Source of the DNA: an uncultured Fibrobacter sp.
GTDB lineage: Bacteria; Fibrobacterota; Fibrobacteria; Fibrobacterales; Fibrobacteraceae
Length of the DNA stretch: 45,955 bases
Direction of reading: 5' to 3'
NCBI GenBank assembly: GCA_947165045.1
Contig: CAMUYW010000023.1
Location: 1 to 45,955 of the forward strand
In this document: positions 1 through 11,927 of the stretch, piece by piece
How positions within the stretch are numbered: position 1 is the first letter of the stretch
Layout of the letters: each line of letters begins with the position of its first letter
Made by a program: the position numbers and the translations under genes
The notes under the pieces: model-generated
What the model was told of the DNA's origin: nothing
Seen by the model: the letters and a program-made list of their open reading frames with translations, nothing else
Databases searched by the model: none

Positions 1-3000
1 GATATTCTATGAGAAATGTTTCTCCAGATGTCGAATAGTGCTCCTCGGCCGATTTTCAGGTATTGCGGCAGAGTTGAAATGCGGTCGTAAAGCATCTGGA
101 TGTATTCGTCCTTTTTGCCGTTAAAATCGAGAATTTCGACGGTATAGACGCTTGGAATGTGCGGATTATTAGAACGATGTTCTGCAACTACAGTTCCCTT
201 GAGTTGCAGCGTGTAGCTCGTCGTTTGAATTTCAAAATTGATGGGTTCACCTAGGTACAAATCGTTCATGTTGTCTGTGTAAATGTCGACTCCGTGTTCA
301 AGTAGTTTTGTGGTAATGCCACTTACGCGGCAGCCGTCTTCTTTAGTGACCTCAACCAATTCCGCGGCTCGAACTTTCACGTTTTCGCCATCGGCATCGC
401 GTCCGAGAACAAGCATAATGCACATGATAAGGTAATACGAATTGATGAATAGCCAGAACAATATGGCGAGTACTCCGATGTATTCGTAAACAATGAACAT
501 GTAAGTCATTTGCGCAATTCCCAAAACGGTCAGTGTCAATAACACAATAAAGGGAATAAGGCTCTTTTTGTCGATAATTCTTTCGTTTGCTTTTTCTTTC
601 TTGGTGACTTTGAATGTCGAAAGCGTGAGGCCAAGCGCTTCCTTAATGATGGGTATCAGCAAGAATGGCATGACGGATGTTTCGTAAATGCCGCTCCAAC
701 GAGTTGAAATCATGTTGCGGCTAAGAACGCGCAGCGAAATAATCTGCATAATATGCATCGGTAGCCAGAATAAAATCAAGTCTAGCAAGGTGCATTTGAA
801 AATGGGAATGCAAAAAACAGCAAACATCAAGGGTGATAGCAAATAAACTAGATGCTTGATGGGGGAAAACCAATATAAAACGGAACTCAGGTAGCTTAAT
901 TTTTGCGCAAAGTTCAATTTGCGATTTCGTAAAAACTTGAGCTGCTTGGCCGTTGCGATGACTCCGCGCCCCCAGCGGGTGCGCTGCTGGATGTGCTCTT
1001 TGAACGAGTTGGGCGCAATTCCCGAGGCGATCGGTTCCGAAAGCCCAAGGCTTGCAAATCCAGATGATTCGATCAGCATGCCGGTTGCAAAGTCTTCGGT
1101 GATGGATTCCGTGTAAAAACCGCCGATTTTGTTTAGCGCCTTTCTTGAAAGAATTGTATTGGAGCCTCCGTAAATCACGCTGTTTGAGGATGTCTTTGCC
1201 GCTTCGATTACGCGGTAGAAAAAGTCTTGTTCGTTCGGAACAATTGTTTCTGCATACAAATTATGTTGGAAAACATCCGGTGTGTAAAAACTTTGCGGTG
1301 TTTGTACAATGCCGAGCGGAAAGCGCTTTTCTTCGGGCAAAGTTTCGTTGATTTTTTCGGCATCGATAAAGTAGGGGATGGTCTTGAGTAAAAACTTGCG
1401 GCGCGGAATCATGTCTGCATCTAAAGTCACTATGTAAGGCGATGTTGTTCGCTTTAAGGCTTCGTTCAGGTTCCCGGCTTTAGCGCCTTTGTTATCGGGG
1501 CGGTCAAAGTAATTTACGCCCAGTTCTTCGGCAAGCTTACGCATTTCGGGGCGGCGATGGTCGTCGCAAAGATAAATGTGTACTTTGTTCTTGTCGGGAT
1601 ATTCTATGTACTTGCAGCCGATAATGGTCTTGCGCAAAAGCTCAACAGGTTCATTGTAAGTGGATATGAAAATGTCGACATCCGGGAATTCTTCGGGCTT
1701 GATTTGCGGTAGCGGATATTTCCTCAAGTTGAGCATGTCGTTGTAATGAATCAATGATTCTATGAATCCGAGAATTTCTACTGCGAGCAAAATGACGCTT
1801 CCTATTACGGCGATGTTTCCGAATGCAAATGGGATGGAACATGTCATTCGCCAGCAAAGGTAAATCAAGGTACAAATAGTTCCTATAATCAGTACGGCGT
1901 TTCTCCAAAAACTTGGCTTGCGTACTTTATCTTCGGTGTGCCCGTATTTGTATAATTGCGTATAGGTCTTGATTTGGTTTCTTTTTATTTTTTTTAGAAC
2001 GATTTTTGTTACTGTTAATAATAAAACGATAATGAGCGCCGGTGCAGCAAATATAAGCCAAAGCATGTAGGGCTTCGTTCGTGACATCAACTTGAAATCG
2101 GAAGTGATGCTTTTGTCGGGTATAATCGAATCGACATCTTCTTTGCGCATAATCGCTCGTGCGAGCTTTCCGTAATATGTCAAATCTTTTTCGGTCAGGT
2201 ATTCTAATGCACGAGAATCCGAATTGACAATGGCGCAAGTTTCATCTTTGTTGGATAAACTCCAAATTGTATAATTTAGATGTAATGAATCGACAAGGCT
2301 GTACCATTTTTTGACGCTTTCCAAGTCAATATGCCCATCGCCATCTTCTTCGCAGAGACCGCTTTCGGTAATGAAAATGGGCGTGCCTGAGGCTACGACT
2401 TTTCTAAGCTTTTGGCGAAAATCATCTTTGTGCGAGGCCGCGTAAAAATGGAACACGTACATGACATTTTTAAATTCCAAAGGATCCTTGGCAGGGAATT
2501 GAATTTCTCGACTGTAGTTCGGTGTTCCGACAAGAATCAATGCATCGGGATTGTATCTGCGGATGACGGGAATTATCAGATTTGAATATTCCTTGATGTC
2601 GTCCCAAGTGGTATTGCCGTTGGGTTCGTTGCAGATTTCGAAAATGACATTGGGAATATTGGCGTATTTTTTTGCAATCTTGTTAAAAAAATCGATTGCT
2701 TCAGCAAGGTTTTCGTTGGGATTATTGTCTTGTAAAATGTGCCAGTCGATGATGACATACATGTCGTTTGCGATGGCGAATTCGACACCTTTTTCGAGAA
2801 TTTCCAAATTTTTCTTTTTGTTACCGTTGCAGTAGTCGTAAGAATACATGGCGAGTCGAATCAAGTTGGTGTTCCACTCGGAACTGATTTGGCGGAAAAG
2901 ACCTTGATTGACATATTTAGGGAACCAAGTGAGCCCGTGTGTGCTGAATCCCTTGAGAACGGCTAGATTGCCTTTGTGGTCGTAGAGGTTTGAACCTACA

Positions 3001-3092
3001 ACGTGGAGCTTTCCATGTGTGGATGGTCGGGCAACATTGGCGTTCGCAAAAACAGCAAATACGAATAAAAAAGCTAAAATAAATCTCGCCAT
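1..3092 (-). CDS. GH5 glucanase - GT2 cellulose-synthase-like - PilZ fusion (3' end cut by window edge)
   Basis: One open frame of about 1030 codons, running off the left edge. Residues 1-18 are a signal peptide or signal anchor. Residues about 20-310 are a GH5 domain: acid/base E156 in ICNEPNG, nucleophile E243 in FITESG, plus DWH, HFY and IWSLS motifs. A transmembrane helix lies at about 343-367 and two more before residue 455. The GT2 domain has DVDIF, DxD (D558/D560), TED (665-667) and QRTRW (703-707), the motif set of processive beta-glucan synthases such as BcsA. More membrane helices follow, then a PilZ-like domain from about residue 895. Its c-di-GMP motifs (RxxxR, D/NxSxxG) look degraded. 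Inferred topology: periplasmic GH5, cytoplasmic GT2 and PilZ. The product is probably a beta-glucan, but linkage cannot be read from sequence. The start is the first ATG, preceded by AAGGGGAA. No bcsB is visible inside the window. Confidence 0.9.
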   Translation of the reverse strand, partial: MARFILAFLFVFAVFANANVARPSTHGKLHVVGSNLYDHKGNLAVLKGFSTHGLTWFPKYVNQGLFRQISSEWNTNLIRLAMYSYDYCNGNKKKNLEILEKGVEFAIANDMYVIIDWHILQDNNPNENLAEAIDFFNKIAKKYANIPNVIFEICNEPNGNTTWDDIKEYSNLIIPVIRRYNPDALILVGTPNYSREIQFPAKDPLEFKNVMYVFHFYAASHKDDFRQKLRKVVASGTPIFITESGLCEEDGDGHIDLESVKKWYSLVDSLHLNYTIWSLSNKDETCAIVNSDSRALEYLTEKDLTYYGKLARAIMRKEDVDSIIPDKSITSDFKLMSRTKPYMLWLIFAAPALIIVLLLTVTKIVLKKIKRNQIKTYTQLYKYGHTEDKVRKPSFWRNAVLIIGTICTLIYLCWRMTCSIPFAFGNIAVIGSVILLAVEILGFIESLIHYNDMLNLRKYPLPQIKPEEFPDVDIFISTYNEPVELLRKTIIGCKYIEYPDKNKVHIYLCDDHRRPEMRKLAEELGVNYFDRPDNKGAKAGNLNEALKRTTSPYIVTLDADMIPRRKFLLKTIPYFIDAEKINETLPEEKRFPLGIVQTPQSFYTPDVFQHNLYAETIVPNEQDFFYRVIEAAKTSSNSVIYGGSNTILSRKALNKIGGFYTESITEDFATGMLIESSGFASLGLSEPIASGIAPNSFKEHIQQRTRWGRGVIATAKQLKFLRNRKLNFAQKLSYLSSVLYWFSPIKHLVYLLSPLMFAVFCIPIFKCTLLDLILFWLPMHIMQIISLRVLSRNMISTRWSGIYETSVMPFLLIPIIKEALGLTLSTFKVTKKEKANERIIDKKSLIPFIVLLTLTVLGIAQMTYMFIVYEYIGVLAILFWLFINSYYLIMCIMLVLGRDADGENVKVRAAELVEVTKEDGCRVSGITTKLLEHGVDIYTDNMNDLYLGEPINFEIQTTSYTLQLKGTVVAEHRSNNPHIPSVYTVEILDFNGKKDEYIQMLYDRISTLPQYLKIGRGALFDIWRNISHRI

Positions 3093-10905: not shown

Positions 10906-10919
10906 TTTGGTGGGTGCCG

Positions 10920-11927
10920 ATGGAAAGTGTTCTTCGAGAAGTTTGGGAATTTTTCCAGATTTATATACTTCCGGTTCTTCCGTTTGTTGCGCTGGTGTTG
11001 ATTGAAGTACACCTCATGTACAATCGTCGCGAAAACGATGTGATGTTTGGTACAGAATCGTTTAACGAGAAGATCAAGGCGTTTGAATTTACGCCTAAGG
11101 AAGTGCGTACGCTGGAAAAGTTGGTGCGTTCATCTAAGTTCGAAAACAAGGATGCCGTGCTGAATTCTTCGGGACTTTTTGAAGCGGCAGTCACTGAATT
11201 TTACCGTATCCGTAACGTATTTTCCGTTCGAGACGAAACGCTCGAAGCGATTGCCGGCTTGAGACGGAAAATGGATTTTACGGGGTCCAATCCTTTGACG
11301 ATGGTTTGCTCCACGAGACAGTTCAATGTGGGGGACCGCGTGGATTTGGAATTTGATGGAGGACAAGTCTTTAAGCGTGCGACAATTCTGGAACGTTCCG
11401 AAAAAACGTGGAGTGTAAAGATTGAGGGTTCCTCAGTTTTAGCCAAGTCTTTGTCTGGTTCTCGAGTTCTCGTCCGCTGGACCCGCATGAACGATGCCGT
11501 CTATTCAAAACGAATTACCGTTTTTGCGGCAACTCCTGATAAAGTAATCTTAAACCATAGTGACTCGCTCGACAAGGAACAGCTACGTAAGTGGCTTCGT
11601 GAAATTGTCGATTTCCCGGTTACAGCGACGTTCCCGAACGGCGAGGTGCACTCTGGTGTACTTTATGACCTTTCTGCTGGTGGTATTTTGCTTGGACTGG
11701 CCGAAGATTGCAAGCCGGACCAGCAGTTCTCCATTTCGTTTGAACTTCCGACATTTGGAGTACAGAACGTGGATGTCAAGGTTTTGAACAATCTTGGCCA
11801 TCGAAATCCGAACTTTCCGCAGTATAATTCCATTTCGGCTGTGTTTACTGGGGCGTATGCATGGACTCAGGAACGAGTTCTACAGTACATTTTTGAGGTA
11901 ACTCGTAAAACAAAGGCAAAAAAATAG
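10920..11927 (+). CDS. Membrane-anchored PilZ-domain protein
   Basis: A 335-residue protein. Residues about 10-32 form one hydrophobic helix (IYILPVLPFVALVLIEVHLM). Residues about 130-190 look like a YcgR-like N-terminal barrel (FNVGDRVDLEFDGG). The C-terminal PilZ domain has RKWLR (RxxxR) and DLSAGG (DxSxxG), so both cyclic-di-GMP binding motifs are intact. It is likely a c-di-GMP sensor at the inner membrane. It starts 14 bases after the pseudo-DHOase stop and lies 113 bases ahead of the pilus operon, which has its own promoter. It may act on pili or other surface machinery; that is inference. ATG 10920 has GGTGGG 5 bases upstream; GTG 10914 is the alternative. Confidence 0.85.
   Translation: MESVLREVWEFFQIYILPVLPFVALVLIEVHLMYNRRENDVMFGTESFNEKIKAFEFTPKEVRTLEKLVRSSKFENKDAVLNSSGLFEAAVTEFYRIRNVFSVRDETLEAIAGLRRKMDFTGSNPLTMVCSTRQFNVGDRVDLEFDGGQVFKRATILERSEKTWSVKIEGSSVLAKSLSGSRVLVRWTRMNDAVYSKRITVFAATPDKVILNHSDSLDKEQLRKWLREIVDFPVTATFPNGEVHSGVLYDLSAGGILLGLAEDCKPDQQFSISFELPTFGVQNVDVKVLNNLGHRNPNFPQYNSISAVFTGAYAWTQERVLQYIFEVTRKTKAKK

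What the first reader, a model, noticed from the sequence alone, without database searches (positions are those of the whole stretch)
1..3092. GH5 glucanase fused to a cellulose-synthase-like GT2 and a degenerate PilZ domain
One polypeptide carries a periplasmic GH5 domain with both catalytic Glu (E156, E243), membrane helices, a complete processive GT2 core (DxD, TED, QRTRW) and a PilZ-like C-terminus. Usual bacterial cellulose systems keep the hydrolase (BcsZ, GH8) separate. A synthase with its own glucanase on the other face of the membrane could trim, release or sense the nascent glucan. The PilZ RxxxR and DxSxxG motifs look lost, so c-di-GMP control may be absent or altered. I do not know how common the fusion is.
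Basis: partly seen in the sequence, partly recalled or inferred. Interest (0 to 1): 0.75.

Follow-up and report, generated by a model that had tools for sequence, protein, structure and literature searches.

The report
Cellulose synthase with built-in cellulase
This Fibrobacter gene joins a cellulase domain and a cellulose-synthase-like domain in one protein, a fusion shared by many gut bacteria; the cellulase part is predicted to cut the sugar chain as it emerges, and the usual c-di-GMP switch is likely lost.

Summary
The fusion is real and unbroken: signal peptide, GH5, membrane helices, GT2, more helices, PilZ-like barrel; 1032 aa, the last two on the adjoining contig. It is not a frameshift or misassembly: all 120 listed homologues carry both domains, 23 of 80 genomes of the genus match, and 80 further loci were fetched, mostly Clostridia. 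GH5 and GT2 catalytic residues are conserved wherever covered. GT2 trees give the fusions one origin, next to Ccs (clostridial cellulose synthase) and apart from a mixed-linkage glucan synthase. Of seven unfused loci examined, four lie in Ccs-like operons; near the fusions such genes are almost absent (MBOAT at 1 of 97 loci). Unfused relatives keep both c-di-GMP motifs (88 of 89); fusions do not (0 of 119), yet their PilZ-like domain stays conserved with other residues. BcsB (0 of 13 genomes) and BcsC (0 of 8) were not found; 5 of 27 fusion genomes lack detectable GGDEF. Best reading: a one-protein synthase whose own endoglucanase likely cuts the nascent β-glucan, laid out like GH17-GT2 (NdvB). 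Product, cutting and c-di-GMP independence are untested. Nine paper searches listed no description that I could see.

The parts
1..3092 (-). GH5-GT2-PilZ-like fusion gene; residues 1-1030 lie in the window, the last 2 residues and the stop on contig C49
3024..3092 (-). predicted signal peptide (hydrophobic stretch, residues 1-23)
   Evidence: hydropathy; low model confidence here
2139..3023 (-). GH5 endoglucanase domain, residues 24-318 (Cel5A-like)
2625..2627 (-). E156, predicted GH5 acid/base (NEP motif)
   Evidence: invariant in 119 of 119 fusions
2364..2366 (-). E243, predicted GH5 nucleophile
   Evidence: invariant in 119 of 119 fusions
1977..2072 (-). extra membrane helix, residues 341-372, absent from 24 of 25 unfused rows
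1731..1910 (-). membrane helices 395-418 and 426-454
957..1685 (-). GT2 catalytic domain, residues 470-712
   Evidence: Pfam; BcsA relatives
1413..1421 (-). DAD (DxD) motif, residues 558-560
1092..1100 (-). TED motif, residues 665-667
972..986 (-). QRTRW motif, residues 703-707
597..614 (-). gating-loop signature FKVTKK, residues 827-832
   Evidence: signature FxVTxK described in PMC10374906
405..866 (-). C-terminal membrane and interface helices, residues 743-896
87..401 (-). PilZ-like domain, residues 898-1002, without RxxxR and [DN]xSxxG
294..299 (-). E932-H933, conserved pair in the altered PilZ-like domain
   Evidence: 119 of 119 fusions; E in 89 and H in 91 of 95 covered loci

Best explanation
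It is one protein, conserved in many gut bacteria, in which a GH5 endoglucanase domain with a predicted signal peptide is fused to a GT2 that groups with the clostridial cellulose synthase CcsA, and the GH5 part would likely cut the β-glucan that the GT2 part is predicted to extrude, releasing it as short chains. Shown: the fusion and its conservation, one origin in the GT2 trees, near absence of Ccs partner genes around it, loss of both c-di-GMP motifs, and an added membrane helix. Inferred: the GT2 polymerises UDP-glucose into a mainly β-1,4-linked chain and passes it out through its own channel. The GH5, about 20 residues from the first membrane helix (341-372), sits at the exit, where BcsB acts in Bcs and CcsB and CcsZ are proposed to act in Ccs, and cuts or transfers the chain. 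The PilZ-like barrel is kept for structure or another signal, so the synthase would run without c-di-GMP. In Gram-negative Fibrobacter, with no BcsC-type pore found, the product would be a short glucan that starts in the periplasm; in Gram-positive hosts it would be released outside.
For: All 120 listed homologues have both domains. 23 of 80 genomes of the genus match, 21 of them in one piece. E156, E243 and the GT2 motifs are invariant in 119 fusions and present at every covered site in 96 loci, so both activities seem to be kept. GT2 trees: 35 fused rows form one clade of SH-aLRT 100, grouped with the Ccs row L122 and apart from the RiGT2-like row L166. L122 lies in L149 in the gene order ccsZABHI, and the GH5 there matches CcsZ 6UJE at 603 bits. 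Near 97 fused loci: MBOAT at 1, no DHHW-, CotH- or DUF4956-like gene. c-di-GMP motifs: 0 of 119 fusions, 88 of 89 unfused. No GGDEF hit in 5 of 27 chosen fusion genomes. BcsB 0 of 13, BcsC 0 of 8 genomes. The predicted topology puts GH5 outside and GT2 inside. Precedent for the layout: GH17-GT2 Orphan/NdvB proteins (PMC10237404, passages). Precedent for c-di-GMP-independent synthesis that still needs the PilZ domain: RiGT2 (PMC10374906 section 10).
Against: No activity, product or topology was measured. The place of the GH5 cleft relative to the channel is unknown. 22 of 27 fusion genomes do have GGDEF domains, and a GAF-GGDEF gene follows the fusion in 5 of 20 Fibrobacter loci, which share one neighbourhood. 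RiGT2 keeps both motifs yet showed no c-di-GMP binding, so motif and response need not go together. Three of seven unfused loci lack MBOAT and DHHW genes (L151-L153), and the direct sister rows P0163 and P0211 have no context. The node that joins Ccs to the fusion group has support 88, and the tree tool warned of long branches. 17 of 97 loci have under 4 kb on both sides, so partner genes could be missed.
Confidence: 0.5

Rival explanations
1. Quality control and export: the GH5 only trims stalled or tangled chains so that long cellulose is exported, as proposed for the separate hydrolases BcsZ and CcsZ; the product is ordinary extracellular cellulose.
For: Hydrolases are regular partners of cellulose synthases; CcsZ is an endo-β-1,4-glucanase proposed to release nascent chains (PMC7710045, passages). 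The GH5 here is an endoglucanase by its relatives.
Against: No outer-membrane pore of BcsC type in 8 Fibrobacter genomes and no Ccs export or acetylation partners near the fusions. A one-to-one covalent tie at the exit would cut far more often than occasional trimming needs (inference).
Confidence: 0.25
2. Transglycosylase: the GH5 joins or cyclises the emerging chain instead of hydrolysing it, as proposed for the GH17 part of NdvB/Orphan proteins.
For: Same order of parts as the GH17-GT2 proteins, for which cleavage and cyclisation are proposed (PMC10237404, passages). GH5 enzymes are retaining, which allows transfer (recalled).
Against: The domain's solved relatives are named hydrolytic endoglucanases, and cyclic β-1,4-glucans are sterically unlikely (recalled).
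Confidence: 0.1
3. Two tasks on one anchor: the GH5 digests outside plant glucan while the GT2 makes an unrelated surface polymer; the fusion only ties them to the membrane.
For: The nearest unfused GH5 relatives are clostridial GH5 proteins, many with PF00553, a cellulose-binding module by recalled name. Many hosts are rumen bacteria by title.
Against: GT2 motifs are invariant, so the GT2 is no mere anchor, and it groups with a synthase that has its own GH5 gene. In Fibrobacter a GH5 on the inner membrane would not reach insoluble fibre (inference).
Confidence: 0.1

Closest known systems
Clostridial cellulose synthase Ccs, ccsZABHI (PMC7710045)
   Same: GT2 core in the same group of the tree; a GH5 endoglucanase partner; no BcsB.
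   Different: In Ccs the GH5 is a separate gene of subfamily GH5_25 (paper) and the synthase has PilZ motifs. Here a Cel5A-like GH5 is fused on, with an extra membrane helix; the motifs and nearly all partner genes are missing.
GH17-GT2 Orphan/NdvB cyclic β-glucan synthases (PMC10237404)
   Same: Signal peptide, exported glycosidase barrel, membrane helices and GT2 in one chain; proposed coupling of synthesis and cutting.
   Different: GH5 in place of GH17, a PilZ-like tail, a Ccs-type GT2; predicted β-1,4 rather than β-1,3 chain.
Bacterial cellulose synthase BcsA-BcsB-BcsC-BcsZ
   Same: GT2 fold and motifs, gating loop, PilZ-like tail; best fold match of residues 334-1030.
   Different: Scores 367.6 against a cut-off of 699.1 for TIGR03030; no BcsB or BcsC found; BcsZ is GH8 and separate (PMC7710045 passages).
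RiGT2, mixed-linkage β-glucan synthase of Romboutsia ilealis (PMC10374906)
   Same: Stand-alone GT2 with PilZ-type tail, no BcsB gene beside it, reported independent of c-di-GMP.
   Different: Falls in another group of the tree (row L166); keeps the PilZ motifs; the paper names no GH5.

Membership tests
Ccs (clostridial cellulose synthase) system | GT2 catalytic subunit of CcsA type | tested here: met
   Groups with L122 (in a ccsZABHI-ordered operon, L149): support 88 for the joint group, 100 for the 53-row group that holds all fusions
Ccs (clostridial cellulose synthase) system | operon with ccsB, MBOAT (ccsH) and DHHW (ccsI) | tested here: not met
   MBOAT near 1 of 97 fused loci, DHHW and the 358-aa gene of L149 near none; 51 of 97 loci have 4 kb or more on both sides
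Ccs (clostridial cellulose synthase) system | separate GH5_25 hydrolase CcsZ | tested here: not met
   GH5 is fused and Cel5A-like; 26% local identity to the CcsZ-like protein of L149
Ccs (clostridial cellulose synthase) system | PilZ domain with c-di-GMP motifs | tested here: not met
   0 of 119 fusions; L122 has both motifs
Bcs cellulose synthase (BcsA, TIGR03030) | score above the curated cut-off | tested here: not met
   367.6 bits against 699.1
Bcs cellulose synthase (BcsA, TIGR03030) | BcsB and BcsC partners | tested here: not met
   BcsB 0 of 13 genomes, control rang in 2 of 14; BcsC domain 0 of 8, control rang in 1 of 14
Bcs cellulose synthase (BcsA, TIGR03030) | processive GT2 motifs D, DxD, TED, QxxRW | tested here: met
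Mixed-linkage β-glucan synthase (RiGT2/Cgs) | placement in the RiGT2 clade | tested here: not met
   L166 (identified by printed length and motif positions) lies in another group, across a branch of support 100; long-branch warning
GH17-GT2 cyclic glucan synthase (NdvB/Orphan) | exported glycosidase domain, membrane region and GT2 in one chain | tested here: met
   topology is predicted only
GH17-GT2 cyclic glucan synthase (NdvB/Orphan) | GH17 domain | tested here: not met
   Pfam finds GH5 and no GH17
GH5 endo-β-1,4-glucanase | GH5 fold with both catalytic glutamates | tested here: met
   subfamily GH5_2 is suggested by neighbours titled so (1egz, 1tvn), not formally assigned
GH5 endo-β-1,4-glucanase | activity on β-1,4-glucan | not testable with these tools
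   needs an enzyme assay

The most novel reading that the evidence does not exclude
A self-cutting, c-di-GMP-blind synthase: gut bacteria reduced a multi-gene cellulose operon to one polypeptide that makes and at once cuts a β-glucan, so that the product is a short soluble glucan (a periplasmic glucan in Fibrobacter), made even by bacteria that live by eating cellulose. Control has passed from c-di-GMP to other switches: in several Clostridia the gene lies beside STAS, STAS-kinase, RsbW-type ATPase and SpoIIE-phosphatase genes, or beside a class III nucleotide cyclase and a cyclic-nucleotide-binding protein.
Probability: 0.3. Interest if true: 0.78.

Novelty: new variant of a known kind. Interest (0 to 1): 0.57.

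Why it matters
It would give a natural one-protein test of what synthase-associated glucanases do, an open point for BcsZ, CcsZ and plant KORRIGAN (the last recalled): mutate E156 or E243 in one chain and compare the products. It offers a cellulose-type synthase that seems to need neither BcsB nor c-di-GMP. It also matters for annotation: among the 120 listed homologues, seven named rows read 'cellulase family glycosylhydrolase' and four 'cellulose synthase (UDP-forming)', so gut surveys may count a polymer maker as a fibre degrader. A glucan made by Fibrobacter and Butyrivibrio, known as fibre digesters (recalled), would be a new part of rumen carbon flow.

Tried and rejected
Frameshift or chimaeric assembly: rejected; unbroken homologues in many genomes. 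Two genus genomes do have broken hits: G135 in two pieces on one contig, G066 in two pieces at contig ends.

Mixed-linkage glucan synthase: my first idea, since RiGT2 also lacks BcsB. Given up as a family placement when the RiGT2-like row L166 fell in another group.

A conserved neighbourhood in Fibrobacter: none; the commonest neighbour families occur in 5 of 20 loci, the BacA/UppP gene next door in 3 of 20.

STAS/SpoIIE linkage as a rule: not supported. It lies within three genes in 10 of 77 non-Fibrobacter loci (20 of 365 genes, against 6 of 340 further off) and in 1 of 20 Fibrobacter loci; the cyclase/cyclic-nucleotide group in 6 of 77 (9 of 365 against 3 of 340) and 0 of 20. The families were formed by single-link BLAST clustering; Pfam checked only some members.

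GH5 against the channel exit: not measured; no coordinates are given out. In the structural second look other folds are not listed, which shows nothing.

Rows dropped or doubled: L128 left out of the trees (29 residues of core); L155-L159 and L168 not added to the second tree; L103 and L136 are one locus fetched twice, so 97 loci are 96. The trees used chosen subsets (35 fused rows; 16 of the 89 unfused PilZ proteins plus locus rows; quick method, no bootstrap). In the GH5 tree 7 GH5-only rows fall inside the fused clade; some look like fragments, and P0252/P0258 may be later splits. The 27 GGDEF-tested genomes were chosen, not drawn at random; G169 went into after one search had shown none.
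Full report
WHAT IS THERE. The window begins at base 1 of contig C23. Its first gene runs on the minus strand from the Met at 3092 off the left edge without a stop. Bases 1-55 recur as C49:1-55 reversed; reading across that overlap gives two more serines and a stop, 1032 aa, the length of P0001, from which it differs at 7 residues. Pfam finds GH5 (38-282, 200.8 bits) and GT2 models (470-760) but no PilZ. The genus is Fibrobacter: two loci of same-genus genomes G136 and G131 lie on contigs of 1,021,791 and 123,736 bases, the contig lengths given for P0007 (Fibrobacter sp. UWB10) and L103 (Fibrobacter succinogenes RUG12439); L103 and the G131 locus carry the same protein.

NOT AN ARTEFACT, NOT RARE. 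The search scored 7999 candidates and found 2063 hits at 1e-20; all 120 that were listed carry GH5 and GT2 domains. In the genus 23 of 80 genomes match, 14 of 40 good ones; 21 are in one piece, G135 and G066 in two. Among 167 Fibrobacterota genomes at 1e-60, the four hits outside the genus cover only the GT2 or only the GH5 part. A scan with a Butyrivibrio homologue gave 105 relatives, 80 kept: 76 Bacillota, 3 Fibrobacterota, 1 Actinomycetota (one metagenome bin, perhaps mis-binned); 45 Lachnospiraceae, 10 Erysipelotrichaceae, 9 Oscillospiraceae. Many titles name rumen or gut samples. It is patchy: in a draw of 391 genomes of the Butyrivibrio genome's class, 10 had a GT2 match at 1e-30, and only the centre genome itself had a fusion-length frame.

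BOTH HALVES ARE UNDER CONSTRAINT. In 119 fusions E156, E243, N155, H215, W277, both DxD aspartates, TED and QxxRW are invariant, and H118 too except for one gap. In 96 loci the same residues are present wherever the site is covered. Neither half looks like a dead passenger.

ORIGIN. In the GT2 trees 35 fused rows form one clade (SH-aLRT 100) among unfused clostridial synthases. The ten-row group with the window (support 100) holds the two rows traceable to Fibrobacter records, P0033 and P0036, and lies within a group that also holds rows from Lachnospiraceae and Clostridiales records (P0068, P0069). That fits one fusion in Clostridia and a transfer into Fibrobacter; most rows are unnamed. Of seven unfused loci fetched, four lie in Ccs-like operons. 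L149 reads GH5 - GT2 - 358 aa - MBOAT - DHHW, the order of ccsZABHI (PMC7710045, passages), and its GH5 matches 6UJE, the CcsZ structure, at 603 bits. L147, L148 and L150 hold MBOAT and DHHW/AlgX-like genes with CotH- and DUF4956-like genes, by Pfam or similarity. L151-L153 lack MBOAT and DHHW genes. Two of the four (L147, L148) belong to the unfused group nearest the fusions; the direct sisters P0163 and P0211 have no context. Around 97 fused loci (20 Fibrobacter, 77 others; one doubled; 51 with at least 4 kb on both sides) an MBOAT homologue occurs once, a relative of one 240-aa operon gene once, and CotH-, DHHW- and DUF4956-like genes never. The GH5 is not CcsZ: its best solved relatives are Cel5A types, and it gives only a 26% local hit with the CcsZ-like protein of L149. 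In the GH5 tree 32 fused and 7 GH5-only rows make one group of support 100. Helix 341-372 is special: 24 of 25 unfused rows start with at most 34 residues before column 395 and no membrane stretch there; L126 is the exception.

MIXED-LINKAGE SYNTHASE TESTED. PMC10374906 (abstract, sections 9 part 1, 10, 11, 12 and passages read) reports RiGT2, a mixed-linkage glucan synthase without a BcsB gene beside it. Row L166 matches its printed length (637) and motif positions. It falls outside the Ccs-plus-fusion group across a branch of support 100, with a long-branch warning. So the fusion is Ccs-like and β-1,4 linkage is the better guess; CcsA's own product is inferred in the literature.

THE PILZ-LIKE DOMAIN. 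88 of 89 unfused proteins have both RxxxR and [DN]xSxxG; 0 of 119 fusions have either. In 94 loci with a C-terminus RxxxR occurs once and [DN]xSxxG twice. The domain is not decaying: R898, E932 and H933 are invariant in the 119, and in 95 covered loci E932 holds in 89 and H933 in 91. Over two calls, 5 of 27 chosen fusion genomes have no GGDEF hit; all five are uncultured records by title and may be incomplete. Against c-di-GMP independence: the other 22 have 1 to 61 hits, 13-32 in each of 8 Fibrobacter genomes, and a GAF-GGDEF gene follows the fusion in 5 of 20 Fibrobacter loci that share one neighbourhood. RiGT2 kept its motifs yet showed no c-di-GMP binding or stimulation, and lost activity without the PilZ domain.

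PARTNERS. BcsB: 0 of 13 genomes, control rang in 2 of 14. BcsC C-terminal domain: 0 of 8 Fibrobacter genomes, control rang in 1 of 14. The window's own genome is 87% complete. Left of the gene C49 carries an Hsp90 gene; to the right lie BacA/UppP, DUF2334 and M23 peptidase genes. In some Clostridia the fusion sits beside STAS or STAS-APH genes, with HATPase and SpoIIE genes in the best case (L034, L035, L054, L064, L101), or near cyclic-nucleotide-binding or class III cyclase genes (L061, L066, L078, L084, L090). This is suggestive only (counts under Tried and rejected).

HOW IT PROBABLY WORKS. The GT2 makes the chain and passes it out; the tethered GH5 meets it at the exit and cuts or transfers it, so that synthesis and release are coupled in one protein, free of c-di-GMP. 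All of this paragraph is inference. The nearest precedent for the layout is the GH17-GT2 Orphan/NdvB family, for which cutting and cyclising of a β-1,3 chain was proposed (PMC10237404, passages). PMC7112194 (passages) reports BcsAB and BcsZC fusions; the passages shown name no synthase-hydrolase fusion. Nine searches listed no paper that I could see describing GH5-GT2; some searches listed only part of their hits, and most subscription journals are not held.

VERDICT. Real, conserved, widespread in gut bacteria, apparently undescribed; a new variant of a known kind (glycosidase-GT2 fused glucan synthases), related to Ccs but not a member of the Ccs system.

Noticed in passing
window 10914-11927 (+): A 337-aa protein with a PilZ domain near its C-terminus; the only PilZ hit in the window's own genome.
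   Followed up: partly
L034 4054-10861; L035 and L054 alike: Butyrivibrio fusions lie in a row with STAS, STAS-APH kinase, HATPase_c_2 and SpoIIE genes, with 15-37 bases between the fusion and the next gene; in L101 a STAS-APH-HATPase protein ends two bases before the fusion.
   Followed up: partly
L061, L066, L078, L084, L090: Genes for a PAS-class III nucleotide cyclase and/or a double cyclic-nucleotide-binding protein near the fusion.
   Followed up: partly
L133, L134, L138, L139, L140: A GAF-GGDEF gene directly follows the fusion in five Fibrobacter loci of one shared neighbourhood; its possible signal is not one the altered PilZ-like domain should bind by motif.
   Followed up: partly
L146 8391-9728 (-), genome G060: A second, partial copy of the fusion (query residues 619-1030) without the GH5 part in the same genome.
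   Followed up: no
L106 and L150 (genome G171, Oribacterium sp. C9): One genome holds both the fusion and an unfused PilZ synthase in a Ccs-like operon with MBOAT, so the fusion does not simply replace it.
   Followed up: no
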